This document shows positions 8,862 to 34,741 of a stretch of 51,116 bases of DNA, one piece after another (within the stretch, counting starts at the first letter, position 1; every line of letters begins with the position of its first letter). This DNA is from a virus: positions 1 to 51,116 of the IMG/VR virus record IMGVR_UViG_3300025000_000144. The stretch is one strand, 5' to 3'. The translations under genes were made by a program, and so were the position numbers. The notes beneath the pieces are model-generated. The model made no database searches. It worked only from the letters and a program-made list of their open reading frames with translations, and was not told the DNA's origin.

Positions 8862-8966
8862 TTCTGAAATCATCATGTGATATAATCTCATAACAGGATT
8901 GTATCACAGAATGATGGTAGAATCACATATACCATAAAAACATTATTTCATTAAGGAGAGGATCAA

Positions 8967-9080
8967 ATGAAAAAATTAATCAGTAAAAAATGGCAACTAG
9001 AAAAGAATCAAATCCGGCAATATAACCTTAAGCGCGCCAGGATTGACAAAAACAAAAGGATCGAATTTTTAACCCGTTGA
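8967..9080 (+). CDS. Very basic micropeptide, 37 aa
   Basis: ATG follows TTAAGGAG downstream of the first copy of the 18-bp element. Lys and Arg make up more than a third of the residues, suggesting nucleic-acid or ribosome binding. No family recognised. Confidence 0.62.
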   Translation: MKKLISKKWQLEKNQIRQYNLKRARIDKNKRIEFLTR

Positions 9081-9167
9081 TTTTAGATCATGGAAGTATA
9101 ACAAAAAGTATGCTTATACTTCCAGAATGTAAGATCAAACCATAATCAAATAATAGGAGCGCGTAAA

Positions 9168-9422
9168 ATGAAAAAAGTACACTTGTATAAACTTAAAGCA
9201 GAATTTAAGGACGGGCATAAAATAAATTTAAAAATTGTCGCGTCAGATATTAGCTGGTTAACTTGTCATATTAATGATATGTCATCATTAAATAGTTTTC
9301 ACGCGGATATCATAAAAGAAAATTATGCAACGGTTAAAGATGAGAATTTTGGATCATCAGACTGGACGCAGGAATTAGAAAAAGATCAAAAACGATGGAA
9401 GACAATTAAGGATAGTATATAA
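9168..9422 (+). CDS. Small protein of unknown function, 84 aa
   Basis: ATG follows AATAGGAGCGCG. The first 30 residues look like two beta-strands (LYKLKAEFKDGHKINLKIVA); the rest is helical and charged. Array gene, followed directly by the 18-bp element at 9427. Function unknown. Confidence 0.72.
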   Translation: MKKVHLYKLKAEFKDGHKINLKIVASDISWLTCHINDMSSLNSFHADIIKENYATVKDENFGSSDWTQELEKDQKRWKTIKDSI

Positions 9423-9468
9423 CATAATGAATATCTTATTTCATGCAGTATATAACAGGAGCTAAAAA

Positions 9469-9681
9469 ATGATTGAATATCCAAATATTGAAAAAATGAA
9501 CGATGACTTAATAAGGTATGCAACGTGCGAATGCTTAAATCATGAATTGCATGATTTAATTTTAGATGTTTGTTTTGAAATTACATCATGCTTGTCTTTA
9601 GATCAAGTACAAAAATCTTTTAAAAGTTTTGATTTATCTATTAGTTTATATCGTAAAATGTGGTTAAAATATTGTCATTAA
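9469..9681 (+). CDS. Small helical protein, 70 aa
   Basis: ATG follows AACAGGAGC. Four cysteines are scattered without a zinc pattern; the sequence looks all-helical. Unknown function. A promoter starts 4 bases after the stop. Confidence 0.7.
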   Translation: MIEYPNIEKMNDDLIRYATCECLNHELHDLILDVCFEITSCLSLDQVQKSFKSFDLSISLYRKMWLKYCH

Positions 9682-9684
9682 CTA

Positions 9685-9712
9685 TTGACAATATTTATTA
9701 ATCTGTTATAAT
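9685..9712 (+). promoter_or_regulatory. Sigma70-type promoter
   Basis: TTGACA 9685-9690, 16-base spacer, TATAAT 9707-9712 with TG one base upstream. Drives 9755 onward. Confidence 0.85.
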
Positions 9713-9754
9713 CAATATAACAGAATCAATCAAATAGATAACAGGAGATAAAAA

Positions 9755-10063
9755 ATGACTGAAAATAAAATTAAGGCTCATGTACTAATTCTTAACAGTA
9801 AGATGGATTTAAACGGTAACAGATATTTTTCTTGTGTGATTACCAGGTTATCCGATGGAAAAATGGCAAGCGGTCAGATATCCGGCGGAGAATCAAACGT
9901 AACCTATAGCATGAGACAATTTTTTGGCGATTGGGATTCTTTTATCTATACCACTAAAGAGATGCCAATTCGGGAATATAACAGATTTACAAAAACCATG
10001 CCGTATATCGGATGTACGCCAGAAGAAATTAATAAAAACATCATGGATCAATGGGACAAGTAG
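9755..10063 (+). CDS. Small protein of unknown function, 102 aa
   Basis: ATG follows AACAGGAGATAAAAA. Strand-rich N-terminus (HVLILNSKMDLNGNRYFSCV), then a glycine-serine turn and a helical C-terminus. No membrane span. First gene behind the 9685 promoter. Not recognised. Confidence 0.74.
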   Translation: MTENKIKAHVLILNSKMDLNGNRYFSCVITRLSDGKMASGQISGGESNVTYSMRQFFGDWDSFIYTTKEMPIREYNRFTKTMPYIGCTPEEINKNIMDQWDK

Positions 10064-10064
10064 A

Positions 10065-10154
10065 ATGCCTGTTATAATCTTTACACTTGTTTTATTCGCG
10101 TTTTTATTAGCAATATGCGGATTATACCGCCTGATAACAGGTAAAAACATATAA
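10065..10154 (+). CDS. Membrane micropeptide, 29 aa
   Basis: ATG one base after the previous stop. Residues 3-20 (VIIFTLVLFAFLLAICGL) form one transmembrane helix, followed by a short basic tail. No clear SD (GGGACAAG only), so translation is probably coupled to the gene before it. Confidence 0.5.
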   Translation: MPVIIFTLVLFAFLLAICGLYRLITGKNI

Positions 10155-10174
10155 CAGAATAGGAGAATGCTAAA

Positions 10175-10363
10175 ATGAAAAACGTATTAATCTTAACTTG
10201 CAATAATGATCATAGTTTGACGGTCACGGCATATAAGGATGATGATAATTATTTTGTCATCCGGTCTTATCCTCAATTTTCTGATATAAAATCAGTAAGA
10301 ATGTATTGTCGCGGTTTGGCATCATTCTTAAACATGCCGTTTGTGGAAGTAAACGAGGTTTAA
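10175..10363 (+). CDS. Small protein of unknown function, 62 aa
   Basis: ATG follows AATAGGAG. Beta-strand-like, with an ILTCNNDHSLTVTAYKDDD start. Its last base overlaps the 18-bp element at 10363. Not recognised. Confidence 0.7.
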   Translation: MKNVLILTCNNDHSLTVTAYKDDDNYFVIRSYPQFSDIKSVRMYCRGLASFLNMPFVEVNEV

Positions 10364-10410
10364 TGAAATAATCTTTTCATATGGTAAAATCAAATAACAG
10401 GAGGTACAAA

Positions 10411-10608
10411 ATGAATAAGGAATTAACAACGGTTGAAACTGGTTTTGCATTACGAATTGACGGGACGCTAACCGCAGAAAATATAACAATCGAAGAAGTC
10501 TTTAACATTATTGAAGGATTATATAATCCTGACGAAAACTTTTCGATTGAAGCATGGGTTTGTGACCCAGATCATAAACCAAATTATTATTGGGCAGAAG
10601 TAGCATAA
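10411..10608 (+). CDS. Small acidic protein, 65 aa
   Basis: ATG 10411 with AACAGGAGG upstream; an earlier in-frame ATG at 10381 abuts the 18-bp element and has no SD. Acidic, with a C-terminal tryptophan/proline-rich end. Unknown function. Confidence 0.72.
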   Translation: MNKELTTVETGFALRIDGTLTAENITIEEVFNIIEGLYNPDENFSIEAWVCDPDHKPNYYWAEVA

Positions 10609-10634
10609 CCAGGAAAATTTAAGGTAATGTTCTA

Positions 10635-10663
10635 TTGTATTTTCTATAACAACGTGCTATAAT
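10635..10663 (+). promoter_or_regulatory. Sigma70-type promoter, weak -35
   Basis: TTGTAT 10635-10640, 17-base spacer, TATAAT 10658-10663 with extended TGC just before it (CGTGC-TATAAT, as at 13632). Confidence 0.75.
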
Positions 10664-10697
10664 TAGGTCATAACAACAAACAAAAGGAGAAAAACAA

Positions 10698-10838
10698 ATG
10701 TGGAATATAAAAATTTTCAAGAATGAATCGCAAGCTCGACAATGGATGAAAAAGAATGAACGCAAATACAGAATGTCAATAGTTTTTATTAACAACGGTA
10801 TTATGGTCGAATACTGTAAACTAATCAAGGTTTATTAA
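10698..10838 (+). CDS. Small basic protein, 46 aa
   Basis: ATG follows AAAAGGAGAAAAACAA. Basic, with a helix-like first half (ESQARQWMKKNERKYR) and a strand-like end. Unknown function; first gene behind the promoter at 10635. Confidence 0.68.
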   Translation: MWNIKIFKNESQARQWMKKNERKYRMSIVFINNGIMVEYCKLIKVY

Positions 10839-10854
10839 AAAGGAGAAAATCAAA

Positions 10855-10965
10855 ATGCTAGAATTGCTAATCTTTGCGCTTATTATGATTGTTGCCTTAA
10901 TTATCAAGGTATCATCTATGGATGATAGAATCCAGGAATTAGAAAAAAAGATCAAAAAACAATAA
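10855..10965 (+). CDS. Membrane micropeptide with coiled tail, 36 aa
   Basis: ATG follows AAAAGGAG. Transmembrane helix at about residues 2-18, then a charged heptad-like tail (DRIQELEKKIKKQ). This layout resembles small phage membrane anchors. Function unknown. Confidence 0.68.
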   Translation: MLELLIFALIMIVALIIKVSSMDDRIQELEKKIKKQ

Positions 10966-11010
10966 CACATAATGAAAATCCGATTTTATGTAACAGGAGG
11001 ATAACAACAC

Positions 11011-11250
11011 ATGCTAAAAGTGACAATATATAGTAATGATGGCAGTAAACGTCAGGCAGATTGTATTTTCAGGACTAATGCAGTATTTATCAGGTTTTTA
11101 AACAAATATGAGAATTATGGTGGTTTTAAAAGATTTAATTGGGATTTAAGGGATGATCAATATAATCCTAGTCATCAGGAATTAGGCGGTATTTTATCAT
11201 GCAATGATGAAGGATTTATCAGTATTTTCAGAAGACTATACACCATATAA
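11011..11250 (+). CDS. Small protein of unknown function, 79 aa
   Basis: ATG follows AACAGGAGGATAACAACAC, behind the 18-bp element at 10972. Basic N-terminal strands, aromatic-rich middle. Not recognised. Confidence 0.72.
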   Translation: MLKVTIYSNDGSKRQADCIFRTNAVFIRFLNKYENYGGFKRFNWDLRDDQYNPSHQELGGILSCNDEGFISIFRRLYTI

Positions 11251-11267
11251 CAGGAAAGGATCAAACA

Positions 11268-11432
11268 ATGCCAATTAACAGGAGACTACGATGGTTTTTA
11301 GAAAATCTTATCAGGTGCGAAGACAATGACAAAAGGATCAACCAGGCCATACTGGCAATAAGAATTATAGAACGTGGGCTGATAACAGAATCCGAGCTAC
11401 AAATGATGGAAAAACTAGGGTTTAAACATTAA
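11268..11432 (+). CDS. Small helical basic protein, 54 aa
   Basis: ATG follows CAGGAAAGGATCAAACA. Helical, with arginines spread along it (MPINRRLRWFLENLIRCEDN); the end (ESELQMMEKLGF) looks like a short helix-turn-helix-like or dimer helix. Unknown function. Confidence 0.65.
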   Translation: MPINRRLRWFLENLIRCEDNDKRINQAILAIRIIERGLITESELQMMEKLGFKH

Positions 11433-11443
11433 CAAATTGCCTA

Positions 11444-11471
11444 TTGACAACCCGTAACAATCAGGTATAAT
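11444..11471 (+). promoter_or_regulatory. Sigma70-type promoter
   Basis: TTGACA 11444-11449, 16-base spacer, TATAAT 11466-11471; no extended -10. The upstream AAATTGCCTA also precedes the promoters at 15462 and 17573. Confidence 0.85.
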
Positions 11472-11494
11472 TAAATCAGAAAAGGATAATCAAT

Positions 11495-11692
11495 ATGGAA
11501 AAACCGATTAATCAATATCCAGATGGCACAGAAGTTTTGTGGATGGCTCATTATCGCCAAGATCCAAACGGTGGAGACATGGACGGCATGGCAGTAAAAC
11601 TATCCGGCAAATTAGAAGGCGTTGCAGTAGAAGCTCAAAAAATTGCCGTAGAATATAACATGATTTTACAATGTTTAAGAAGGCGATATTAA
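11495..11692 (+). CDS. Small protein of unknown function, 65 aa
   Basis: ATG follows AAAAGGATAATCAAT. Strand-like and proline-rich at the start, with an aspartate/glycine loop (DPNGGDMDG) and a helical end. First gene behind the promoter at 11444. Confidence 0.68.
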   Translation: MEKPINQYPDGTEVLWMAHYRQDPNGGDMDGMAVKLSGKLEGVAVEAQKIAVEYNMILQCLRRRY

Positions 11693-11699
11693 TAACACA

Positions 11700-11748
11700 A
11701 TGAAACAATCCTTTTATGGGGTTGTACACAATGAAATTCAAGTTTTAT
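11700..11748 (+). repeat. Tandem pair of 18-bp elements
   Basis: Two reverse-type copies, ATGAAA-N6-TTTTAT at 11700-11717 and 11731-11748, are separated by 13 bases and followed by ATAACAGGAG and the next gene. The ATG inside the first copy opens a longer reading frame but has no SD. Confidence 0.85.
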
Positions 11749-11768
11749 CTATAACAGGAGATTATCAT

Positions 11769-12101
11769 ATGGTCTTAACAAAAACAGAATTTGCTTTATA
11801 TGAAGACATGAAAAATAATGGCGGTAGACAAGAATCATGGGATTGGGAATCTGATTACAGGTTTGCGCTTATAATCAATGATGTGGAATCCGCTAATTTA
11901 ATCAGAAAAGCATGTGACTCTTCATCCGTAGCGGTTTTTCGTTATGCAGCGGTAAGATCAACGGGAATAACACAGAAGCGGTTATCTTGCTTGCGCCAAT
12001 TGGTAAAAAAGCAATTGGTTGATAGTTATTGGAGCGGATTAGGAGAAGGCGCGGTTAGTCAATATAATTTACGGCGTGTTCGCACCTATGCCGTTAGATA
12101 A
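11769..12101 (+). CDS. Small protein of unknown function, 110 aa
   Basis: Start chosen at ATG 11769 because ATAACAGGAG lies 9 bases upstream; the in-frame ATG at 11700 belongs to the 18-bp element. The middle is tryptophan-rich and acidic, while the C-terminal third is very basic (RRVRTYAVR), a layout seen in nucleic-acid-binding proteins. No family recognised. Confidence 0.72.
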   Translation: MVLTKTEFALYEDMKNNGGRQESWDWESDYRFALIINDVESANLIRKACDSSSVAVFRYAAVRSTGITQKRLSCLRQLVKKQLVDSYWSGLGEGAVSQYNLRRVRTYAVR

Positions 12102-12122
12102 AAACATAACAGGAGGCATAAA

Positions 12123-12305
12123 ATGATCACAGAATTAAAATCAGTCACGGTAAAAGGCAAGGTAGAAAAAGATGTTTACGGGACATTTGATGATGTAATC
12201 AAAGGGATGTTCATAGATCGAGACTCTATGGAGACTATTTTTTGGAGATTTCTCGATAGGAACGTAACCATCACCATAACAGAAACACCAGAACAGGAGG
12301 TATAA
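12123..12305 (+). CDS. Small protein of unknown function, 60 aa
   Basis: ATG follows AACAGGAGGCATAAA. Its last codons provide the CAGGAGG for the next gene, one base away, so the two are coupled. Strand-like, acidic. Unknown. Confidence 0.7.
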   Translation: MITELKSVTVKGKVEKDVYGTFDDVIKGMFIDRDSMETIFWRFLDRNVTITITETPEQEV

Positions 12306-12306
12306 A

Positions 12307-12489
12307 ATGAAGTATGGTATATTTGTAATCTATGAAAACGGAACAATCAAAAGGTATGACGAAGACATGGGTTTTGAATCCGCAGAAAAAGCTTGTGATA
12401 GCCTGAAATTATGGCAGGAAATGTACCATGAGGATTATTTACCTTTGGGAGGATTGTATTTTACATTTCTACCCGTTTTTACACGATAA
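12307..12489 (+). CDS. Small protein of unknown function, 60 aa
   Basis: ATG follows CAGGAGGTATAAA. Starts KYGIFVIYENGTIKRYDED, a strand-turn-strand, then a helix; the end is aromatic. Its stop overlaps the 18-bp element at 12486. Unknown. Confidence 0.7.
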   Translation: MKYGIFVIYENGTIKRYDEDMGFESAEKACDSLKLWQEMYHEDYLPLGGLYFTFLPVFTR

Positions 12490-12530
12490 AATGTCAATTT
12501 CATAACAACTAACCAGGAAAGGATGACGAC

Positions 12531-13403
12531 TTGAAAAAATCAATAACTGCTATTATAACAACCGCAGGATTGGTTTTAATTATGTGTAACAGCATAACAA
12601 TAACCAGGAATCCCATCCAAAAATCATCCTCTAATTTCAAGGTAAAAGATAATGCCGTTGTTACAACTACAAATACAATAAACGTGGCAAAAAACATTGT
12701 ACCCATAGTAGATACGGGTATGAAGTATGACATATCTTCATATTATCACAAACAGATGGATAACAGCGAATACCGATATGGTTTTTTGTATTCTGTAAGG
12801 GATTACTTTAATGGCGAAGACGTCCGTTATAATTTCTGTGGTGTAATGACACTTCTAAACACAATGGATATCATACAAGGATATAACAGCATGTCGGCCA
12901 CAGAAATAGTAAACACATATTTTGTAGATGACAACGGCAATATTGTGCCTACGTATGAAGGCAGGGGATCGGCATTCAGGGACAGCAACGGATCAATGTC
13001 TCCAACGAGCTTATACTGGATGGCTGATAAAATTGGTGCAGACACAGATTTATGGCATATGACAGTTGTTTATGGTGCAGTTGATTTTACCCTATTGGAA
13101 CCCGTGAGAAAATCAGATGTGGAACAGATAGTCGAGAAAGCAAAGTCTGAAGTTTTTGCCAACAACGGCGTGATTATTGCTCATGTCGGAATAGCAAGCG
13201 CAGGACAATTTAGTTATTGGCATTTTATAGTTATAGAAAATATGAAAATAACCGCGAACGGCGACCTGGAACTGCTAATTGTGGATTCTATGGGATATTA
13301 CGGATGGGTAGACGCTAACGAATATCTGATATCCGCAGAGCCTTATAACAGCGATATATTTACAGGTATTGTAAATCTTTATGGCGTAATTCCAAACAGA
13401 TAA
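12531..13403 (+). CDS. Secreted C39/papain-like cysteine peptidase, 290 aa
   Basis: Starts at TTG 12531 behind AGGAAAGGATGACGAC. Residues 1-22 form a signal peptide or anchor (KK, then a hydrophobic run ending LIMC). The middle holds YNFCGVMTLLNTMDIIQGYN (cysteine near residue 104), the CG-xx-xx-L pattern of C39-type peptidases; the histidine would be in SYWHFIVIEN near 236 and the third residue in LIVDSMGYYGWV near 255. It would act outside the cytoplasmic membrane, on a secreted peptide or envelope protein. It could also be an inactive family member. It is by far the largest gene in this part of the array, flanked by genes of about 60 codons. Confidence 0.68.
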   Translation: MKKSITAIITTAGLVLIMCNSITITRNPIQKSSSNFKVKDNAVVTTTNTINVAKNIVPIVDTGMKYDISSYYHKQMDNSEYRYGFLYSVRDYFNGEDVRYNFCGVMTLLNTMDIIQGYNSMSATEIVNTYFVDDNGNIVPTYEGRGSAFRDSNGSMSPTSLYWMADKIGADTDLWHMTVVYGAVDFTLLEPVRKSDVEQIVEKAKSEVFANNGVIIAHVGIASAGQFSYWHFIVIENMKITANGDLELLIVDSMGYYGWVDANEYLISAEPYNSDIFTGIVNLYGVIPNR

Positions 13404-13416
13404 CAGGAGGCACAAA

Positions 13417-13584
13417 ATGTTTACTATTCAAGATATTATGGACAGGTACAAGGTTAGGTCGTGGCGTGAAACAGATGATTACCTAGTTGCTATCAGAAAA
13501 GGTAAAATGTGGTTGTACTTTCAATGGCAGGATGATGAAATCGGATATATTCAGGTGGGATCAACGGATCATTTTGAACATTAG
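13417..13584 (+). CDS. Small tryptophan-rich protein, 55 aa
   Basis: ATG follows ATAACAGGAGGCACAAA. Strand-rich, with several Trp and Tyr residues in the second half (KMWLYFQWQDDEIGYIQV). Last gene before the promoter at 13609. Unknown function. Confidence 0.7.
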   Translation: MFTIQDIMDRYKVRSWRETDDYLVAIRKGKMWLYFQWQDDEIGYIQVGSTDHFEH

Positions 13585-13608
13585 ATAACTTAAAATATCC
13601 AGAAATAC

Positions 13609-13637
13609 TTGACTTCTTGAAATTGTCGTGCTATACT
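13609..13637 (+). promoter_or_regulatory. Sigma70-type promoter
   Basis: TTGACT 13609-13614, 17-base spacer, TATACT 13632-13637, extended TGC upstream. It starts a transcript with an unusually long leader. Confidence 0.82.
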
Positions 13638-13785
13638 TATAATATAAATGAAATGATGCGCTCGAATAAAATATCGGATATAAAGAAACATAAAAATAAA
13701 CATGCCCTAAAAATATGATGTTCGGAGGCGCAGTCCTCCACCGAAGCGCAAAATTTCAAATAACAGGTAATGAAAGGAGAATTTT
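13638..13785 (+). promoter_or_regulatory. Long 5' leader with GC-rich hairpin
   Basis: About 140 bases between the promoter and ATG 13786. At about 13722-13746 GGAGG pairs with CCTCC around CGCAGT, with TTC/GAA able to extend the stem past a bulge. This GC-rich patch stands out in AT-rich DNA, and the paired GGAGG could also be a sequestered SD. The end carries the 18-bp element at 13770, whose spacer supplies the real SD (GGAG). Confidence 0.45.
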
Positions 13786-14073
13786 ATGACAACCGATAAT
13801 CAATACTGGTTATCCCTGACCGAAGATCAAGTAAAAGATACGGCTAAACTATGGTCAAAAAAATTCACCACCAAACGACTGGAAACATTTATTGACTGGT
13901 ATAGAAAAATCAATCGCAATCTATTTCTAACACTATCAGAAGAAGAACGGCAAGGCAAAATTGAAACAGATAATGGTAAAGAAATGACTGCTATTCATAA
14001 TCGAGAACGTGTAGCCTTGATTGCCAGGTTTATGCGTGAAAATCCAAAAGACACTATACCGGATTACTTATAA
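13786..14073 (+). CDS. Small protein of unknown function, 95 aa
   Basis: ATG overlaps the right arm of the 18-bp element, and AAAGGAG in that element's spacer is the ribosome site. Helical and charged; the C-terminus reads ARFMRENPKDTIPDYL. Not recognised. Confidence 0.72.
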   Translation: MTTDNQYWLSLTEDQVKDTAKLWSKKFTTKRLETFIDWYRKINRNLFLTLSEEERQGKIETDNGKEMTAIHNRERVALIARFMRENPKDTIPDYL

Positions 14074-14110
14074 TAAAAGACCAATTTCATTAACAGAATA
14101 GGAGATACTA

Positions 14111-14464
14111 ATGACTGAATTAGAGCAGGAAGTAACCAAGATTTGTGAAGAACACGCAAGCGGTTATGACAGCGGTATGTCGGGGTTTATGTCTGATTTA
14201 CGGCGCGGTGGTTGTGTTTCGGGCATTATTGGTGCATTGTGCTACTACAGCGATACCAATAAATTCCATGATGATTTTGAAACCGATATTTGGGATTTAC
14301 TTTCAGAAAATGCAGAAGAGCAAGGCATCACTATTCCAGAATTTATTGCATCCTTGAATGGTGCTGATAACGTTGGCAGTATTGAACAACACAAGAATCT
14401 TTTAGCGTGGTTTGCATTTGAGGAAACCGCTTTTAGGTTGTTTGATAAAGACCAGGAGGATTAA
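14111..14464 (+). CDS. Conserved-looking phage protein, 117 aa
   Basis: ATG follows AATAGGAG. The stretch SGYDSGMSGFMSDLRRGGCVSG and the following ALCYYSDTNKFH resemble an uncharacterised family that recurs in phages of many hosts (possibly the one catalogued as DUF7222; from memory, not checked). Acidic, alpha-helical, no enzyme motif. It is 2 bases from the next gene. Confidence 0.72.
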   Translation: MTELEQEVTKICEEHASGYDSGMSGFMSDLRRGGCVSGIIGALCYYSDTNKFHDDFETDIWDLLSENAEEQGITIPEFIASLNGADNVGSIEQHKNLLAWFAFEETAFRLFDKDQED

Positions 14465-14466
14465 CC

Positions 14467-14691
14467 ATGATAAAATTGATGGTATCACATAATTGTGGAA
14501 TAAGTTATTTTTGCCAAAAAGAAGCTAACACAATAGAGGAACTAAAACCAGACTGTGAAAAATTGAATGAAGAAATGTGGAGATGGTATCTTGAAGACAC
14601 AGAAAATCCTAATGAATTAGTTGGTGATCCCTGCGCTATTCATGCTGGTATACTATCCTTTATTGATGGTCTCAACAAACAGCAATCATAA
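14467..14691 (+). CDS. Small acidic protein, 74 aa
   Basis: ATG follows CAGGAGGATTAACC, where the SD is inside the end of the preceding gene. Acidic and helical, with a strand-like first 20 residues. Unknown function. Confidence 0.7.
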   Translation: MIKLMVSHNCGISYFCQKEANTIEELKPDCEKLNEEMWRWYLEDTENPNELVGDPCAIHAGILSFIDGLNKQQS

Positions 14692-14729
14692 TAAAACAAG
14701 AATTTCATATAACAGAAAGGATAAAATAG

Positions 14730-14978: not shown

Positions 14979-15012
14979 ATAAAATACTATTTTCATTAAC
15001 AGGAGGTCAATA

Positions 15013-15216: not shown

Positions 15217-15233
15217 TAACAAAGGAGGATTGG

Positions 15234-28101: not shown

Positions 28102-28104
28102 CCC

Positions 28105-28712: not shown

Positions 28713-28727
28713 AAGAAGGATTTTATT

Positions 28728-28946
28728 ATGAAATGGCGATCTAAGATACCTATTTATGGCGATAAAAGAATTGTTAAAAGATTTCTCCTGTTCCCTATGC
28801 GTCTCGGCAGGGATGCGAGATGGTTGGAAATCGCTTATATTTTGCAAGAATGGAATGTGGGTTGGAATAACGAAAGATGGACGGATTCCGACACATATGA
28901 TACATTCGTTAAAGGCGTTTTCCATAATAAAAGAGAGATTTCATAA
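28728..28946 (+). CDS. Small basic protein, 72 aa
   Basis: ATG follows GAAGGATTTTATT, where the SD sits inside the 18-bp element at 28709. Arg- and Trp-rich. The 3' coding end overlaps the element at 28927, and the stop TAA shares its last base with the next ATG. Unknown function. Confidence 0.67.
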   Translation: MKWRSKIPIYGDKRIVKRFLLFPMRLGRDARWLEIAYILQEWNVGWNNERWTDSDTYDTFVKGVFHNKREIS

Positions 28947-29191
28947 TGTATATTCCTACAATGTTTGATCTCAGAGAAATGGTTCGTGGATATTTTGACC
29001 ATGGTTCTCACAGCCTTTTGCGCCAACTAATTAATCATGTTGTACGCGAAGCCCAGGATGGCAAAACTGAATGTAATTTTTACACCGGAGGAGAGCATTT
29101 GACAGAAAAGGAAGAAGATGCTCTTCGAGATTCAGGATGGATTATCAATTGGAATAGTCCTTGCCTGTGGTATGAAATTGCGTGGGATTAA
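28946..29191 (+). CDS. Small protein of unknown function, 81 aa
   Basis: ATG overlaps the preceding stop (TAATG), and AGAGAG in the element's spacer is the best SD. Soluble, helical, with a tryptophan-rich end. Unknown function. Confidence 0.67.
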   Translation: MYIPTMFDLREMVRGYFDHGSHSLLRQLINHVVREAQDGKTECNFYTGGEHLTEKEEDALRDSGWIINWNSPCLWYEIAWD

Positions 29192-29218
29192 TAAAATAAG
29201 TCTTTTATTAGGAGTAAA

Positions 29219-29362
29219 ATGCCAGACGAAGTTATCAAAGGGGCGTTATTATTTATATTTTGGTTTGCGGTAGGTACTTATGTAATTACTTATTTATTTG
29301 AAATTATTAGATATATAGTATTAAGTTGCCAACTAAAAAATATGCGCAAAAAAAGAAGATAA
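29219..29362 (+). CDS. Membrane micropeptide, 47 aa
   Basis: ATG follows TTAGGAGTAAA. One long hydrophobic segment (about residues 9-36) then a basic tail KNMRKKRR, giving a probable cytoplasmic C-terminus. Unknown function. Confidence 0.66.
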   Translation: MPDEVIKGALLFIFWFAVGTYVITYLFEIIRYIVLSCQLKNMRKKRR

Positions 29363-29388
29363 AATCAGCGTTTCATGAGGAGAGTAAA

Positions 29389-29595
29389 ATGAGTAAACTT
29401 GAAAATATTTTAATAGATGGTGAAAATAATAGTGCCGCAGAAATATTAAATCACTTATTATACAGCGTTGGTATTGCGGATGTTCTTCTTCATATCAAAG
29501 AATATTGTATTAATGTGCATTGTAATTTTTCATTTGAAACCGATAATGCGGGAATAAAATTTGTTGATGATAATATTATCGTATTAAAAAAATAA
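29389..29595 (+). CDS. Small protein of unknown function, 68 aa
   Basis: ATG 29389 follows GAGGAGAGTAAA; an in-frame upstream start lies in the previous gene. Acidic helical start, strand-rich end. Unknown function. Confidence 0.69.
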   Translation: MSKLENILIDGENNSAAEILNHLLYSVGIADVLLHIKEYCINVHCNFSFETDNAGIKFVDDNIIVLKK

Positions 29596-29619
29596 AATGA
29601 TTGTTTCATGAGGAGCACT

Positions 29620-29802
29620 ATGAATAAATTAGAATGGATTGAAGAACTTGCTAGGATTAGTAAAATGTCAAAGAAGGAACGGCTCGCTTATGATCTTGAG
29701 CAGATACCAAAAATCCACTGGAGCGACGATGAAGAATATGTGGTATTCGTTGATCGCAAACTTGATGTTTTAATTGGTTCCTTGATGCAGTTCTTATCAT
29801 GA
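29620..29802 (+). CDS. Small helical protein, 60 aa
   Basis: Start chosen at ATG 29620 with TGAGGAGCACT upstream; ATG 29608 is the CATG of the 18-bp element. Helical, with strands at the end. Unknown function. Confidence 0.7.
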   Translation: MNKLEWIEELARISKMSKKERLAYDLEQIPKIHWSDDEEYVVFVDRKLDVLIGSLMQFLS

Positions 29803-29803
29803 A

Positions 29804-30331
29804 ATGATGACAATGAAAAATAGCTATAAAATCTGTGAAAATTACGTAATAATTTATTATACATCCGAAGCCGGTGAAAATTTTGAAATACTTGTAGACG
29901 AGGAAGATTTTAATAGAATAGTAGATTTTGGGTATAGTATTAATTGTCACCGAATGTTAAATACCGGATTGGTTTATCCTAGTTTTACAGAATATGTTGG
30001 GAAAAATTCAAAAGGAAAATCTAAATACAAATCTCATTTGCTACATAGATTTATTTTGAATTTCCCCGATTTTATTATAGATCACGTTAATAATAATACA
30101 TTAGACGATAGAAAATCTAATTTAAAACTATCAAATAAAAGTTTAAATGGCATAAATCGAATTGGAGCCAATAAAAATAATGTTTCGGGATATCGCAATG
30201 TATCTCTTCATAACGGAAAATATTTTGTGCAATTACAAATTGATGGCAAAAATAAGGTTTTAGGTAGTTTTGCTAATCCTGAAGAGGCTAACACCTTTGC
30301 GGAAGAAATGCGTAGAAAATATTATGAATAG
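29804..30331 (+). CDS. HNH homing endonuclease with AP2 domain, 175 aa
   Basis: Site-specific DNA nuclease of the mobile HNH kind. HRFIL, then IDHVNNNTLDDRKSNLK (about residues 80-108), supply the HNH catalytic histidines and asparagine; the C-terminal GYRNVSLHNGKYFVQLQIDG and SFANPEEANTFAEE form a one-unit AP2 DNA-binding domain. No SD is visible, and the junction before it lacks a proper 18-bp element, unlike its neighbours, suggesting later insertion into the array. Start may be ATG 29804, 29807 or 29813. Confidence 0.85.
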   Translation: MMTMKNSYKICENYVIIYYTSEAGENFEILVDEEDFNRIVDFGYSINCHRMLNTGLVYPSFTEYVGKNSKGKSKYKSHLLHRFILNFPDFIIDHVNNNTLDDRKSNLKLSNKSLNGINRIGANKNNVSGYRNVSLHNGKYFVQLQIDGKNKVLGSFANPEEANTFAEEMRRKYYE

Positions 30332-30359
30332 TTTTTTCATGTGGTAAAAGGAGACAAAT

Positions 30360-31457
30360 TTGGGAATTAATGTACTTTCGCTATTCGATGGAATATCTTG
30401 TGGTATGGTAGCTTTAGAACGCGCTGGCATCCAAGTGGATAATTATTACGCCAGCGAAATTGATAAATATGCGACTCAGATTTCTCAAAAGAATTATCCC
30501 GATATTATTAGATTAGGAGATATTAATAATTGGCAGGAATGGAAGTTGCCAAAAATTGATTTGATTATGGGAGGAAGTCCGTGCCAGGGATTTTCAAATG
30601 CTGGAATGGGATTAAATTTTGAAGATTCGCGTAGCAAATTGTTTTTTGTATTTGTTGATATTTTGAAATTTTATCAACCAGAATATTTTCTTTTAGAAAA
30701 TGTAAAGATGAAACAAGAATGGCAGAACATTATTTCTGATTTGGTTGGTGTAAAACCTATTGAAATTAATTCATCGCTGGTATCGGCACAAAACAGGAAA
30801 AGATTGTACTGGACGAATATAGCCAATGTTCAAATTCCTGAAGATAAACATATTTATCTAAAAGATATTATTTTTCCAGATGCAGATATTCCTTGTTTGC
30901 ACAATATTTATGGAGGATTTAAAGAGGTGGAGCCAAGAACCTTTTTTGAAAAATCCCCAACCATTAGAACTAGTGCAGGTGGCGGTCATATCCCAAGCAT
31001 TGTAGACATCAATAAAGTAAACGGAGCAGCTACCAGGAACCAAATTACAAACCACGGAGTAGAATTTCAACTCAATATGAGGAATGACGGCAAATCCAAC
31101 TGCGTGGTTCCTTCTTATACAGAAAGATTAAATTTATTAGTTCACACAGAAAAAGCCATCGAGTACATGAATAGAGAGGTTGCTGACGGAAGAACACATT
31201 GGGATTTTGATCATCACAGCGATGTAAAAAACGAAAAATCATCGTGTATTACCGCCAACACATACAAAGGCATCCCCTATAATGTTCTGGTGACAGAAAA
31301 ATTAATTAGAAAATTTCATCCAATAGAATGTGAGCGGCTACAAACCCTACCAGACAATTATACTGAGGGCGTTAGTGATAGTCAAAGATATAAAGGCATA
31401 GGAAATGGTTGGACTGTGGATGTAATCGCACATATATTGAGCAACATGAAATATTAG
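30360..31457 (+). CDS. C5-cytosine DNA methyltransferase, 365 aa
   Basis: Methylates cytosine C5 in DNA using S-adenosylmethionine. Motif I SLFDGISCGMVALERAG, motif IV GGSPCQGFSNAG (catalytic cysteine near residue 76), motif VI LLENVKM (near 115), motif VIII QNRKRLYW (near 142), motif IX SPTIRTSAGG and motif X GNGWTVDVIAHIL are all present in order, so it looks active. Starts at TTG 30360 behind AAAGGAG. With the Dam-type gene 5 kb upstream it gives the phage two kinds of DNA methylation, presumably against host restriction. The recognition site cannot be read from sequence. Confidence 0.9.
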   Translation: MGINVLSLFDGISCGMVALERAGIQVDNYYASEIDKYATQISQKNYPDIIRLGDINNWQEWKLPKIDLIMGGSPCQGFSNAGMGLNFEDSRSKLFFVFVDILKFYQPEYFLLENVKMKQEWQNIISDLVGVKPIEINSSLVSAQNRKRLYWTNIANVQIPEDKHIYLKDIIFPDADIPCLHNIYGGFKEVEPRTFFEKSPTIRTSAGGGHIPSIVDINKVNGAATRNQITNHGVEFQLNMRNDGKSNCVVPSYTERLNLLVHTEKAIEYMNREVADGRTHWDFDHHSDVKNEKSSCITANTYKGIPYNVLVTEKLIRKFHPIECERLQTLPDNYTEGVSDSQRYKGIGNGWTVDVIAHILSNMKY

Positions 31458-31473
31458 TTTTATTAGGAGAAAA

Positions 31474-31689
31474 ATGGAAATTATTCAATACAGCAACTAT
31501 ATAAATTTCAACCCAGACTGGTTTGATCCAACCATAGAAAAAGTATTTTTTGTTGAAAATTTTGATGACAAATATGTTCGCGGATTTAAATGGAATTATA
31601 ATAATAACAATAAAATTCCGGTTAGAATATCTATGAAGAAATTCTTGTCTGAATATCAACCAAAACCAGAATTGGATTTTGGTGAATAA
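31474..31689 (+). CDS. Small protein of unknown function, 71 aa
   Basis: ATG follows TTAGGAGAAAA. Asn- and Phe-rich, mixed structure. The stop falls in the 18-bp element at 31686. Unknown function. Confidence 0.68.
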   Translation: MEIIQYSNYINFNPDWFDPTIEKVFFVENFDDKYVRGFKWNYNNNNKIPVRISMKKFLSEYQPKPELDFGE

Positions 31690-31719
31690 AATCAACATTT
31701 TATTAGAAAGGAATAAATC

Positions 31720-31977
31720 TTGAATAAATTAGATTTTGAATTGGACAGACGGGAAACCGAGAATGGACACGAAGATTATTGGTTCAAAGTAAATGGTGAT
31801 TCGTTGAAAGAATTAGAAAAAGAATTATGGGAACAAAGCATGTTACAAGTAACGAGCGTGGTTTATTCCAAAGACGAAGATGTTGTTGGAGTAAGGCGAG
31901 ATTTCCTTTGGAATTGGGATGTAGTTTTGAGTGAGAATAAAGAATTGAATATCGTTCTCAAAGAATTAACTAAATAA
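31720..31977 (+). CDS. Small acidic protein, 85 aa, TTG start
   Basis: TTG follows AAAGGAATAAATC. Acidic and mixed, with a VSVVYSKDEDVVGVRR-like strand region. Last gene before the 32000-32075 control region. Unknown function. Confidence 0.69.
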   Translation: MNKLDFELDRRETENGHEDYWFKVNGDSLKELEKELWEQSMLQVTSVVYSKDEDVVGVRRDFLWNWDVVLSENKELNIVLKELTK

Positions 31978-31999
31978 ATACATGTTCTTACATTTCTAA

Positions 32000-32034
32000 C
32001 GAATAAACTTCGCGAAAACAATACTTTATTCGCG
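32000..32034. promoter_or_regulatory. Two mutually exclusive inverted repeats upstream of a promoter
   Basis: CGAATAAA (32000-32007) pairs with TTTATTCG (32025-32032), and CGCGAA (32011-32016) pairs with TTCGCG (32029-32034); the two stems cannot form together. TTCGCGAA (32009-32016) is itself a palindrome. They end 12 bases before the -35 at 32047, so a protein-binding site or a termination/antitermination switch is possible. Confidence 0.5.
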
Positions 32035-32046
32035 ACAATGAATAAC

Positions 32047-32075
32047 TTGACAAAATATCAAAATTGTGGTAATAT
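32047..32075 (+). promoter_or_regulatory. Sigma70-type promoter with element at +1
   Basis: TTGACA 32047-32052, 17-base spacer, TAATAT 32070-32075, extended TGG. An 18-bp element begins at 32085, about where transcription would start. Confidence 0.87.
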
Positions 32076-32113
32076 TATAACGTAATAAAATTCTACTTTC
32101 ATGAGGAGAAAAT

Positions 32114-32308
32114 ATGGATAAAATTAGGAGATGGAATAAACTTGCCGTGTGGCTGGGTATAACAATTTTGGACGTTGATGCTAAGACTCGCGCATATGGA
32201 ACCGCAACGGAACATCAGGATATGCTTCGCCGTCTGGAAACTCTGCAAGAGGTATTAGCCAAAATGGAAGAAATTGAAAAAGAAATTCCAGAACCAGATG
32301 ATCAATAA
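32114..32308 (+). CDS. Small coiled-coil protein, 64 aa
   Basis: ATG follows TGAGGAGAAAAT. The C-terminal half is a heptad-rich helix (MLRRLETLQEVLAKMEEIEK) ending in an acidic tail. Unknown function. Confidence 0.7.
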   Translation: MDKIRRWNKLAVWLGITILDVDAKTRAYGTATEHQDMLRRLETLQEVLAKMEEIEKEIPEPDDQ

Positions 32309-32309
32309 A

Positions 32310-32549
32310 ATGAAATATGAAGACCGTCACGATTTATTTCCTGACACTGTTATTATATCCTATCCTTTTCGATGGGGTGGGCATAGGTGTGATGCGTGGA
32401 TGTGGCTGGCAGAAATAAATGGAGAAGTTTTGGACTATCACCGTAAAGACAAGTTAATTCAGAACGCCATTAAAGCAAATAGAAATTATGTTGTCTTGCG
32501 AGTTCATAAAGATGAAGATATGTCTATCACAATAGTAGAACATAATTAA
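32310..32549 (+). CDS. Small protein of unknown function, 79 aa
   Basis: ATG 32310 lies one base after the previous stop, with no strong SD, so it is probably coupled; ATG 32298 is the alternative. Aromatic and basic (SYPFRWGGHRCDAWMWLAEI), mixed alpha/beta. Unknown function. Confidence 0.65.
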   Translation: MKYEDRHDLFPDTVIISYPFRWGGHRCDAWMWLAEINGEVLDYHRKDKLIQNAIKANRNYVVLRVHKDEDMSITIVEHN

Positions 32550-32587
32550 AACTAAATTTTATTAGAATCGAAGGAGATAGGAAATTA

Positions 32588-33187
32588 ATGACTTTAATTA
32601 TCGGCGTAGATTTTACTTTGGGTAAAGATAAGTATCTTTATATGGCTGGTGACAAATGTGGAAGCGACGGGTTTACAAAAGATTTATATGTAAAACCTAA
32701 AATTTTCAAAAGAGATGATTTGGCGTTTGGCTATACGTCATCTTTTCGCATGGGTCAAATTTTAGAATATGCTAAAATATCTAAGGATCTGCCGAACTGG
32801 AAAGAAGAAAAAAATGTATATACTTCCTTTGTAGATTGGGCTAAAACAGCCATGAAGGATGGCGGTTATTTACAAGAAGATAAGGGAGTAGCAAAAGGCG
32901 GTAATTTTATTTTTTACAATGGAAAAACATTATATGAAGTCCAAAATGATTTTTCAATTTTAGTTCCAGAAGACGGTTTGTTGGCTGTTGGTTCTGGTGA
33001 ATATCACGCAAAAGCAATTATGCGGACTTATATGGCATTGGTTAAAAAAGAACAAGTCAAATTTGATATAGATTTAATGGTATCTTTGGTTTATGACACC
33101 GTTAGTTCGCTAGTAACATCTGTTTCTAAAGAACATGATTTATTTGATTTATCTAAAAAAGAAAAAGTACCACATAATGAAAACTAG
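32588..33187 (+). CDS. Proteasome/HslV-like Ntn hydrolase, 199 aa
   Basis: Resembles the catalytic subunit of HslVU or the proteasome beta fold. After removal of Met the chain would begin with Thr1 (TLIIGVDF); GD at position 21 and K37 in VKPKIF match the Asp17 and Lys33 of the Ntn active site, and FGYTSSFRMGQIL fits the following strand and helix. The length is close to HslV (about 175-200). ATG follows AAGGAGATAGGAAATTA. No HslU-type ATPase is visible nearby, so it may act alone, use a host ATPase, or be a phage hydrolase of other specificity. Confidence 0.74.
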   Translation: MTLIIGVDFTLGKDKYLYMAGDKCGSDGFTKDLYVKPKIFKRDDLAFGYTSSFRMGQILEYAKISKDLPNWKEEKNVYTSFVDWAKTAMKDGGYLQEDKGVAKGGNFIFYNGKTLYEVQNDFSILVPEDGLLAVGSGEYHAKAIMRTYMALVKKEQVKFDIDLMVSLVYDTVSSLVTSVSKEHDLFDLSKKEKVPHNEN

Positions 33188-33206
33188 ATTTTATTAAGGA
33201 GATGTT

Positions 33207-33608
33207 ATGAGTAAACCGTGGGACTGGATTGGCGTAGATTTTGTTGGACATAGTGGTGGGGATTATGGCGCTGAAGATGATTTATCTGGCTCCATTATGG
33301 ACAGTCTCGACAAGATGATTGTCGCGCTCGCTGGCGAAGTCGAATATTATAAATTGTTTAAAAAATGCCTTCAGAATTATACCAGGTTTCAAATACAAAG
33401 CGCCAGCAATCTTTACACCAATATTGAAATAGAAAAAGGTAATATTCGAAGCGGAGAAGGTCATTTGCGTGGCGAAAACTTTGGTACTTGGGGCAAGGAG
33501 TGCTCTAACCGTCTTGACGATATTCGCGTCGAAATCAATAGGTTGAGCAATCTTTGGGATCAAGTTCCTGAAGACATACAAAAACTGGTAACATTTACGA
33601 TATTTTGA
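33207..33608 (+). CDS. Protein of unknown function, 133 aa
   Basis: ATG follows TAAGGAGATGTT. Soluble and mostly helical, with a VDFVGHSGGDYGAEDD start rich in Gly and Asp. It sits directly after the Ntn hydrolase with the element at 33177 between them. Not recognised. Confidence 0.72.
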   Translation: MSKPWDWIGVDFVGHSGGDYGAEDDLSGSIMDSLDKMIVALAGEVEYYKLFKKCLQNYTRFQIQSASNLYTNIEIEKGNIRSGEGHLRGENFGTWGKECSNRLDDIRVEINRLSNLWDQVPEDIQKLVTFTIF

Positions 33609-33622
33609 TTAGGGAGATTATC

Positions 33623-33904
33623 ATGAACGATGTTGAAGATTTGAAGACATTGCTAGATCGAGCGGATAAATTATTTGCCCATAAATCTAGAGAGGTAAAA
33701 TTATCTTCCTATGATTATACCTTGGGGAGATTCCCTTATGGCTGGACATTTAGTGTAACAAACTCGTGGTATAAATGGTCTGCCAAGAACTTAAAACACC
33801 AGTTCGGTGCGTGGAACGAACCAGAATATGCTGTAAAAGATTTTCTTGATTATGTAGAAGCAAATCATATTAATGTAGCAAAACTAATGGAAAAAGAAAC
33901 ATAA
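33623..33904 (+). CDS. Small protein of unknown function, 93 aa
   Basis: ATG 33623 follows TAGGGAGATTATC; an in-frame TTG upstream overlaps the previous gene. Tryptophan- and tyrosine-rich centre (YDYTLGRFPYGWTFSVTNSW), helical end. Unknown function. Confidence 0.7.
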   Translation: MNDVEDLKTLLDRADKLFAHKSREVKLSSYDYTLGRFPYGWTFSVTNSWYKWSAKNLKHQFGAWNEPEYAVKDFLDYVEANHINVAKLMEKET

Positions 33905-33935
33905 TAAAATGCACATTTCATAAAGGAGGAGTGAT

Positions 33936-34157
33936 ATGATACTTATTCCATATAATTCAGAATATATGCCTGGTACGTGGAAGGGCGGGTCTGCTTGGAA
34001 TGGCAAAACCGCATTAGTTACGTGTACCAATGGACATACGTGTACGCTTTCAGAGCACAAAATAGCAGACGACGGTACTGTGTCTCCGTCACTTGTATGC
34101 CCATACGATGGTTGTAATTTCCATGAATTTGTGAAATTGGAAGGATGGACGATATGA
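33936..34157 (+). CDS. Small zinc-binding-like protein, 73 aa
   Basis: ATG follows AAAGGAGGAGTGAT. CTNGHTC (about 30-36) and CPYDGC (about 55-60) could form one Cys/His metal site. Strand-rich. The stop overlaps the next ATG (ATATGA). Confidence 0.69.
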   Translation: MILIPYNSEYMPGTWKGGSAWNGKTALVTCTNGHTCTLSEHKIADDGTVSPSLVCPYDGCNFHEFVKLEGWTI

Positions 34158-34333
34158 GTGAACTAGATGAAGTTGTAAAGCAAGGTGTTGAAGGATTCCT
34201 GAAATTCTTGCATGAACACGGATATTTTGTTTATCGTAATCCCAGCAAAGACGTGGTTATTGCGCAAGACGGAAGTATTGCCAGCAAGGAAACCATGGAT
34301 AAATTAATTGCTAAATTTTTGGAAAGGCAGTAG
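34154..34333 (+). CDS. Small helical protein, 59 aa
   Basis: ATG 34154 is 9 bases from GGAAGG; ATG 34145 is too close to it. Helical, with a predicted beta-hairpin (YFVYRNPSKDVVIAQDG) in the middle. Unknown function. Confidence 0.67.
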   Translation: MSELDEVVKQGVEGFLKFLHEHGYFVYRNPSKDVVIAQDGSIASKETMDKLIAKFLERQ

Positions 34334-34336
34334 AAG

Positions 34337-34714
34337 ATGAAATTCGTACAAAAACTAATCGATGACACCAATAAAGGTGATTGGGATTTTAAGTGGAAAT
34401 ATAGCGATGGATCACAAACATATACTTTCAATCAGCCCAAGCATTATCTCAGTGGCTTGAATTTTTCACTGACAGCAAATAAAAAGTTACTGATATTCCC
34501 GAATGGCTATGGACTAGAAACCAACTTGCTTGAAGGTCTCAAGAAAGCCGTTGACGTATCTCTGGAACGCACAGTAGATGAAAGTATGCGACTATATGTT
34601 GAAGGCAAAGAAATGACGCAGGAACAAGAAGACCTGGCGGCTGAACAGGAAGCGGCGAAAGCCACTAATAAGCCAGATGAAAAGAAAGAGCCACAGGACA
34701 AGAAAAAATCGTAG
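34337..34714 (+). CDS. Protein with charged tail, 125 aa
   Basis: ATG starts 3 bases after the preceding stop, behind AAGGCAGTAG. The first 90 residues are mixed alpha/beta; the last 35 are low-complexity Glu, Lys, Ala and Asp, probably disordered. Last gene before the final promoter of the array. Not recognised. Confidence 0.71.
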   Translation: MKFVQKLIDDTNKGDWDFKWKYSDGSQTYTFNQPKHYLSGLNFSLTANKKLLIFPNGYGLETNLLEGLKKAVDVSLERTVDESMRLYVEGKEMTQEQEDLAAEQEAAKATNKPDEKKEPQDKKKS

Positions 34715-34741
34715 TAGATAAAATCTTTATTTCATCTACCC

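What the first reader, a model, noticed from the sequence alone, without database searches (positions are those of the whole stretch)
8934..34735. About 50 copies of an 18-bp element, ATRAAA-N6-TTTYAT, punctuate a 26-kb small-gene array
Almost every gene junction in the array has the same two 6-mers, with exactly 6 variable bases between them in about 50 of the copies, placed after one stop codon and before the next SD. The element stops abruptly before the sugar genes and is absent from the left 8.9 kb. Its density and fixed spacing go beyond chance in AT-rich DNA, and I know of no named element with this consensus. SPbeta carries dispersed dyad repeats (SPBRE, from memory) and may be a functional parallel. 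Possible roles: operator for one regulator over the whole array, phage-polymerase signal, RNA-processing hairpin, or recombination punctuation.
Basis: seen in the sequence. Interest (0 to 1): 0.92.

Follow-up and report, generated by a model that had tools for sequence, protein, structure and literature searches.

The report
Address-tagged gene-swap sites in phages
The short repeats between the small genes look like recombination sites that each carry a unique 6-letter address: related phages keep the same addresses in the same order and orientation while the genes between them are completely different, which suggests a dedicated mechanism by which large phages of the SPbeta kind swap genes one slot at a time.

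Summary
Confirmed: 50 exact ATRAAA-N6-TTTYAT copies, spacing 6 only, against about one for any other spacing. The window is a fragment of an SPbeta-like phage encoding a YonO-type RNA polymerase. The element is not private to it. TRAAA-N6-TTTYA is the most enriched gapped palindrome in SPbeta itself (34 copies, 2.4 expected) and is enriched in all 21 tested records carrying YomM, a tyrosine-recombinase-like late protein. It is not SPBRE. The variable N6 is the key. Every spacer is unique within a genome, yet related phages carry the same spacers in the same order and orientation while the DNA on one or both sides is unrelated. A sister contig (L479) shares 12 exact spacers with this window, all in order and orientation; only one has both flanks homologous, six have neither. 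Among SPbeta phages, 258 same-spacer pairs have random flanks, yet 96% keep orientation and 93% position (11% by chance). Best reading: each copy is a site-specific recombination site (arms plus a 6-bp crossover/address) at which phages exchange gene cassettes slot by slot, probably by YomM. Shown by comparison: precise, address-conserving exchange. Inferred: enzyme and chemistry. Closest known principle: pdif modules of Acinetobacter plasmids.

The parts
8406..8423 (.). element, spacer GTAATA (left of the array; may be chance)
8934..8951 (.). element, spacer ACATTA
10363..10380 (.). element, spacer TAATCT
   Evidence: upstream stop ends at base 1
10972..10989 (.). element, spacer ATCCGA
11700..11717 (.). 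element, spacer CAATCC
11731..11748 (.). element, spacer TTCAAG
12486..12503 (.). element, spacer TGTCAA
   Evidence: stop codon inside left arm
13770..13787 (.). element, spacer GGAGAA
14073..14090 (.). element, spacer GACCAA
14691..14708 (.). element, spacer CAAGAA
14979..14996 (.). element, spacer TACTAT
15428..15445 (.). element, spacer TGCAAC
   Evidence: stop codon inside left arm
15724..15741 (.). element, spacer CGCTGT
15758..15775 (.). element, spacer GGACAA
15926..15943 (.). element, spacer GCAAGA
   Evidence: stop codon inside left arm
16788..16805 (.). element, spacer CAACGA
16907..16924 (.). element, spacer TAATAG
   Evidence: stop codon inside left arm
17322..17339 (.). element, spacer CGGTTG
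18079..18096 (.). element, spacer CTGGTA
   Evidence: stop codon inside left arm
18100..18117 (.). element, spacer AGACCA
18705..18722 (.). element, spacer CACATC
19216..19233 (.). element, spacer TCAGGA
19749..19766 (.). element, spacer TGACGA
   Evidence: stop codon inside left arm
20051..20068 (.). element, spacer CCTGAA
20840..20857 (.). element, spacer GTTAGA
22645..22662 (.). element, spacer TCAAAG
   Evidence: stop codon inside left arm
22921..22938 (.). element, spacer TCATAC
23149..23166 (.). element, spacer TCGTGA
   Evidence: stop codon inside left arm
23349..23366 (.). element, spacer TGAGGA
   Evidence: stop codon inside left arm
23924..23941 (.). element, spacer GGAGTG
24067..24084 (.). 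element, spacer GCGATA
24288..24305 (.). element, spacer CAGGCA; address shared with L479, both flanks homologous
24530..24547 (.). element, spacer CAAGAG; address shared with L479, left flank homologous only; homology ends at 24547
24756..24773 (.). element, spacer AAGATA (inside a gene, may be chance)
25219..25236 (.). element, spacer TAAGGG
   Evidence: stop codon inside left arm
25559..25576 (.). one-mismatch element, spacer GACGAA; same spacer in L479 at 1105, between shared addresses, so in order
25903..25920 (.). element, spacer GATTCG; address shared with L479, neither flank homologous
27013..27030 (.). element, spacer TTCTCG
   Evidence: stop codon inside left arm
28709..28726 (.). 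element, spacer GAAGGA; address shared with L479, neither flank homologous
28927..28944 (.). element, spacer GAGAGA
29191..29208 (.). element, spacer TAAGTC; address shared with L479, neither flank homologous by score (a 31-bp match spans it)
29359..29376 (.). element, spacer TCAGCG; address shared with L479, neither flank homologous by score (a 39-bp match spans it)
29592..29609 (.). element, spacer TGATTG; address shared with L479, right flank homologous only; homology starts at 29592
31446..31463 (.). element, spacer TATTAG; address shared with L479, right flank homologous only; homology starts at 31446
31686..31703 (.). element, spacer TCAACA; address shared with L479, left flank homologous only; homology ends at 31700
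32085..32102 (.). element, spacer TTCTAC (L479 has TTATAC at the homologous place)
33177..33194 (.). element, spacer ACTAGA; address shared with L479, neither flank homologous
33904..33921 (.). element, spacer TGCACA; address shared with L479, neither flank homologous by score (a 29-bp match spans it)
34718..34735 (.). last element of the array, spacer TCTTTA; address shared with L479, left flank homologous only; homology ends at 34735
39705..39722 (.). pattern match inside a glycosyltransferase-like gene, probably chance
50990..51007 (.). pattern match after the sugar genes, status unclear
8682..34714 (+). array of about 80 small genes whose junctions carry the elements (the proposed cassettes)
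1067..3826 (-). YonO-type single-chain RNA polymerase; places the window among SPbeta-like phages

Best explanation
Each element is a site-specific recombination site: two inverted arms (TRAAA core; TYTnnATAAAA, 11 bp, in SPbeta phages) around a 6-bp crossover region. The crossover sequence is different at every site of one genome, so sites do not recombine with each other. It is the same at corresponding sites of related phages, so during co-infection, or infection of a lysogen, corresponding sites can recombine and the gene or genes between two sites are replaced without changing gene order. Sites lie at stop codons (the arm itself often supplies TAA or TGA), so exchange keeps reading frames intact. 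The window's array is a very dense platform of such cassettes. The enzyme is most likely YomM, a tyrosine recombinase encoded among the late genes. Shown by comparison: precise, address- and orientation-conserving exchange at the element. Inferred: the tyrosine-recombinase chemistry, YomM as the enzyme, the requirement for spacer identity, and the timing.
For: 1) Sister contig L479 shares 12 exact spacers with the window (0.8 expected, maximum 5 of 2000 resamplings), 12 of 12 in the same orientation and order; flanks homologous on both sides 1, one side 5, neither 6; several homology blocks end exactly at element edges (24547, 29592, 31446, 34735). 2) In 8 SPbeta-group genomes, same-spacer pairs: both flanks homologous 87, one side 146, neither 258; 'neither' flanks fall to about 30% identity roughly 10-13 bp outside, yet 256/266 keep orientation and 117/126 are colinear (11% expected). 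3) Pairs chosen only by one homologous flank: spacer identical in 156/182. 4) Isolated identity islands of 15-34 bp: 114 of 115 that are elements are colinear, against 179 of 2946 others. 5) No spacer repeated within any of 12 genomes. 6) The window's other close relatives (L085, G002) show a homology block starting exactly at element TAGTCA. 7) 11-6-11 half-site logo in the SPbeta group. 8) YomM: catalytic R, K, H, Y invariant in 14 homologues, Xer/Cre/lambda-Int fold, present in all 21 enriched records tested, absent from PMBT24 and TR-TP1, which lack the element (PMBT24 has only a weak partial hit), and encoded in the window's sister contig G033 with R-K-HxxR-W-Y. 9) For pdif sites crossover needs identical or nearly identical 6-bp spacers (PMC13141974).
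Against: No experiment shows recombination at a site. In laboratory SPbeta x phi3T hybrids most switch points lie in long identical tracts and cannot be resolved; one resolvable switch (41 bp shared, Hyb3 about 54.0 kb) has no element, so ordinary homologous recombination also occurs. YomM of the SPbeta clade has HxxK in place of HxxR, which could weaken or abolish activity. YomM presence and element presence are confounded with phage lineage, and one YomM carrier (G003) has relatively few sites (19 against 6). The window is a fragment and carries no yomM itself.
Confidence: 0.78

Rival explanations
1. The same address-guided exchange, but carried out by another tyrosine recombinase: host XerC/XerD (CodV/RipX) or the phage protein YopP.
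For: The 11-6-11 layout resembles Xer dif sites. YopP is a second tyrosine-recombinase-like protein in most of these phages.
Against: G005 has 69 elements and no detectable YopP, while YomM homologues are in the element carriers examined and in the window's sister contig. The host part of the Metabacillus contig is not enriched. The dif arm consensus, recalled from memory, differs in the inner bases.
Confidence: 0.1
2. The elements are short homology anchors: a phage annealing protein (Sak4-like in SPbeta) recombines at any conserved 16-28-bp stretch, and the elements are conserved for another reason such as regulation.
For: Short conserved linkers at mosaic boundaries are a known idea for phages (own knowledge). 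Homologous recombination outside elements does occur.
Against: Other shared 15-34-bp islands are colinear in only 6% of cases, elements in 99%. Common palindromic arms with a fixed 6-bp, site-unique spacer are unexplained by annealing alone.
Confidence: 0.08
3. Operators or stoperators: a phage regulator binds the palindrome at gene junctions and represses or stops transcription; coincidence with mosaic boundaries is secondary.
For: Dyad symmetry, high copy number, intergenic placement, and some copies beside sigma-70-like promoters. Cluster A mycobacteriophages use dispersed stoperators (PMC9283540).
Against: A regulator does not explain why the non-conserved N6 differs at every site yet is the same at each location in related phages with unrelated flanking genes. 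The known SPbeta master repressor binds a different motif.
Confidence: 0.03
4. Phage RNA polymerase (YonO) promoter or RNA-processing hairpin.
For: The element carriers examined generally encode a YonO-type polymerase.
Against: YonO transcribes 37 late genes from one start upstream of yonK (PMC5467207); SPbeta elements lie mostly outside the late operon and none is in the yonK-yonN gap. YonO phages PMBT24 and TR-TP1 lack the element. In the window 27 of 50 copies have an A-C mismatch in the would-be stem.
Confidence: 0.01

Closest known systems
pdif sites and dif modules of Acinetobacter plasmids (XerC/XerD)
   Same: Inverted recombinase arms around a 6-bp spacer; modules of one or a few genes; [quoted passage not shown] single modules replaced with near-identical spacers left and right (PMC13141974).
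   Different: There: a few sites per plasmid, distinct XerC and XerD arms, host enzyme, repeated spacers that give inversions and deletions. Here: about 15-80 sites in a phage genome, near-symmetric arms, every spacer unique within the genome and conserved by location between genomes, probably a phage enzyme.
Integrons and attC cassette arrays (also reported in phages, PMC9892861)
   Same: Arrays of small promoterless genes, each followed by a recombination site at its end; tyrosine recombinase.
   Different: Integrons insert at one attI site and cassette order is free; here order is fixed by addresses, and the site is a simple two-arm palindrome rather than a folded attC.
SPBRE / MrpR of SPbeta
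   Same: Dispersed dyad repeats in the same phages; MrpR has a tyrosine-recombinase fold.
   Different: Different sequence (ATACA-N7-TGTAT) and a repressor operator; about ten sites (PMC10516654).
Mycobacteriophage stoperators
   Same: Many short sites in intergenic gaps of one phage.
   Different: Asymmetric repressor sites without a location-specific variable core.

Membership tests
pdif / dif module system | two recombinase arms separated by a 6-bp spacer (11-6-11) | tested here: met
   Fixed spacing of 6; 11-bp half-site TYTnnATAAAA in the SPbeta group. In the window only ATRAAA is strong.
pdif / dif module system | exchange between sites with identical spacers | tested here: met
   By comparison only; no assay.
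pdif / dif module system | distinct XerC and XerD binding arms and host XerCD as enzyme | not tested
   Arms are near-symmetric and do not look like the dif consensus recalled from memory; the enzyme was not tested.
tyrosine recombinase (for YomM) | catalytic R, K, H, R, H/W, Y | tested here: met
   R180, K211/K217, H281, Y319 invariant in 14 homologues. The second Arg is Lys in the SPbeta clade; Arg in G005, MT835481, G010 and G033.
tyrosine recombinase (for YomM) | fold | tested here: met
   Model pLDDT 85; top PDB matches XerA, Cre, Tn1549 Int, XerH, lambda Int.
integron / attC | attC secondary structure and an IntI-type integrase | not tested
   No attC model was run; the site is a simple two-arm palindrome.
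SPBRE (MrpR operator) | 15-bp motif AAAAAATATGTATAT | tested here: not met
   Motif rederived from MrpR targets; separate palindrome in SPbeta.
stoperator | asymmetric repressor site oriented with transcription | tested here: not met
   Element is palindromic or near-palindromic.
stoperator | bound by a repressor that halts transcription | not testable with these tools
   needs binding and transcription assays
SPbeta-like (YonO-encoding) phages, for the window | YonO-type polymerase | tested here: met

The most novel reading that the evidence does not exclude
Large phages of the SPbeta kind use a dedicated, phage-encoded recombination system with address-tagged sites to trade gene cassettes slot by slot with relatives, a programmed mechanism of phage mosaicism that had not been described.
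Probability: 0.7. Interest if true: 0.96.

Novelty: new variant of a known kind. Interest (0 to 1): 0.93.

Why it matters
Why phage genomes are mosaics of modules, and why boundaries fall between genes, is a long-standing question usually answered by random recombination plus selection. Here a specific short site marks the boundaries and carries a location code, in phages as well studied as SPbeta and phi3T. It makes modular evolution directly testable in Bacillus subtilis, gives a plausible function to YomM, for which no described role was found in the papers searched, explains how tiny accessory genes (for example the phi3T counter-defence gene nip, which sits between two addresses) could be traded, and offers a set of mutually orthogonal recombination sites.

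Tried and rejected
Promoter for YonO: rejected by the late-only role of YonO and the SPbeta distribution. SPBRE/MrpR: different motif. Host-protein site: the host part of the Metabacillus contig is not enriched and sites cluster in the prophage. RNA hairpin: A-C mismatch in 27 of 50 copies; not folded. Similarity of window DNA to known phages: none. Element plus Shine-Dalgarno scan of viral contigs: mostly single chance hits, but gave the key relative G005 through L174. YomM-absence argument in Metabacillus G010: a divergent tyrosine recombinase sits in the same slot after yomN. Laboratory hybrids: not diagnostic. A gene-end control for breakpoints was only modestly significant in most pairs (p 0.0002 to 0.2), so the argument rests on spacers, not on that test. 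A scan with another array protein gave distant loci of little use.
Full report
OBSERVATION. The window holds 50 exact copies of ATRAAA-N6-TTTYAT; any other spacing between the two 6-mers (0-19) gives at most one. With one mismatch allowed there are 58 against 5.8 in shuffled sequence. Since the pattern is its own reverse complement, ATAAAA..TTTCAT (27 copies) and ATGAAA..TTTTAT (12) are the same element in two orientations; 9 are A/A and 2 G/G, a departure from independence of the arms (Fisher p = 2e-4). Fifteen copies have the stop codon of the upstream gene as bases 2-4 of the left arm and five more end it at base 1.

WHAT THE WINDOW IS. The record is a 51-kb virus fragment. The minus-strand gene at 1067-3826 is a YonO-type single-chain RNA polymerase (Pfam RdRP 3e-15, phrog_8308 2e-108, tblastn to Bacillus phage BUCT082 at 35%, SPbeta yonO, Enterocloster and Psychrobacillus phages). 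The phage is therefore SPbeta-like. No DNA similarity to deposited phages was found for 20-28 kb.

THE ELEMENT IS SHARED. The same pattern has 69 copies in the 138-kb record G005, 14 in SPbeta, 15 in BUCT082, 16 in phi3T and 38 in Psychrobacillus phage Perkons. An unbiased scan of all gapped 5-mer palindromes makes TAAAA-N6-TTTTA the top motif of SPbeta (34 against 2.35 expected), BUCT082 (37), phi3T (30) and a Metabacillus prophage (28 against 3.4), but not of host DNA from the same contig. SPBRE appears separately as ATACA-N7-TGTAT. In SPbeta 30 of 34 copies are between genes as annotated, many with the stop codon in the left arm and the next start 20-36 nt away, as in the window. In 21 of 21 records carrying YomM the pattern TRAAA-N6-TTTYA exceeds its reversed control (15-84 against 2-11); it does not in Enterocloster phage PMBT24 (2 against 10) or Thomasclavelia phage TR-TP1 (6 against 6).

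EXCHANGE AT THE ELEMENT. Comparing SPbeta with phi3T and BUCT082, many homology blocks begin or end at an element. For example SPbeta 83687-86899 is essentially identical to phi3T, is bounded by elements TGTAAG and GTAAAA, and is flanked on both outer sides by unrelated DNA. Sites lie near block boundaries more often than other gene ends do, but this test alone is modest.

ADDRESSES. The 6-bp spacers are unique within each of 11 genomes and among all 50 window copies, but recur between genomes. In eight SPbeta-group genomes, distinct same-spacer pairs fall into both flanks homologous (87), left only (71), right only (75) and neither (258). In the last class flank identity is about 30%, the random level, from roughly 10-13 bp outside the element, yet 256 of 266 pairs keep orientation and 117 of 126 are colinear with anchor sites, where 11% is expected. 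Selecting pairs only by one homologous flank, so without looking at the spacer, the spacer is identical in 156 of 182 and differs by one base in 19. As a control, among isolated exact matches of 15-34 bp with unrelated flanks, 114 of 115 that are elements are colinear, against 179 of 2946 that are not. These genome pairs are related, so p-values overstate independence; the effect sizes are what carries the argument.

THE WINDOW ITSELF. L479, part of a 91-kb contig (G033) about 80-95% identical where homologous, has 18 elements in 12.6 kb. Twelve have exactly the spacer of a window element (24289 to 34719, core coordinates), all in the same orientation and strictly in order (0.8 matches expected by chance). 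A thirteenth matches the one-mismatch element at 25559. Both flanks are homologous at one, one flank at five, neither at six; three of the last six lie inside short matches of 29-39 bp. The intervals between shared addresses differ in length and content, for example 1854 bp with a DNA methyltransferase in the window against 232 bp in L479 between TGATTG and TATTAG. Two other relatives, L085 and G002, share three addresses in order, and a homology block begins exactly at TAGTCA with unrelated DNA of 3.0 and 2.1 kb between it and the previous address.

ENZYME. The half-site logo of the SPbeta group is TYTnnATAAAA, giving an 11-6-11 site, the layout of Xer dif sites. YomM is encoded in the late region; in most of these phages it is 59-68% identical to the SPbeta protein even where YonO is only 23-57% identical. 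Its catalytic R, K, H and Y are invariant in 14 homologues as distant as 18% identity, its predicted fold matches XerA, Cre and lambda Int, and its slot is occupied by a divergent tyrosine recombinase even in the Metabacillus prophage. SPbeta-clade YomM has Lys in place of the second Arg; G005, MT835481, G010 and the window's sister contig G033 have Arg. No paper in the library holds YomM, phage and recombinase together. An element lies directly after the yomM homologue of Perkons and of G005, and the address TCCCTC recurs just downstream of yomM in six further lineages, with unrelated DNA beyond it in many pairs.

LIMITS. No assay was possible. Four laboratory SPbeta x phi3T hybrids switch parent mostly inside long identical tracts and one switch has no element, so homologous recombination also contributes. 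YomM could be replaced by YopP or host XerCD in the model. The pdif literature shows the same spacer rule experimentally for XerCD (PMC13141974), which is why I treat this as a new variant of a known principle rather than an unrelated mechanism.

Noticed in passing
L234 (phi3T) about 43288-44645: The phi3T counter-defence gene nip (phi3T_120) with phi3T_121 lies exactly between two addresses, GATAGT and TATTTA; SPbeta has a different gene there. All ten published SPbeta/phi3T hybrids selected to evade SpbK defence carry this pair (PMC11984713).
   Followed up: partly
window about 25925, 32045 and 34745: Recurrent sigma-70-like promoters TTGACA..TGTGGTAATAT, some directly beside an element, suggest that a few host-polymerase promoters drive the array.
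   Followed up: no
window:29804-30331, 40901-41590, 44636-45346, 47579-48529, 49332-50138: Five HNH/GIY-YIG-like proteins with AP2-like C-terminal motifs (judged by eye) sit between other genes, four among the sugar genes.
   Followed up: no
window:30360-31457 and 24566-25222: C5-cytosine methyltransferase-like (by eye) and N6-adenine D12-type methyltransferase genes; the first lies in a cassette missing from L479.
   Followed up: partly
window:35153-50758: Cluster of nucleotide-sugar and glycosyltransferase-like genes (dTDP-sugar type by eye), with only one in-gene pattern match.
   Followed up: no
L215 (SPbeta 99497) against phi3T 89339: Address TGATAA occurs in inverted orientation in phi3T relative to SPbeta, a possible trace of inversion.
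   Followed up: no
L209 (G005:32324-35110): The YonO-like gene of G005 has one in-frame TAA in the search alignment.
   Followed up: no
window, all elements: In this phage 39 of 50 sites pair one A-type with one G-type arm, whereas SPbeta sites are almost all A/A; this could give the site polarity, as XerC/XerD arms do.
   Followed up: partly
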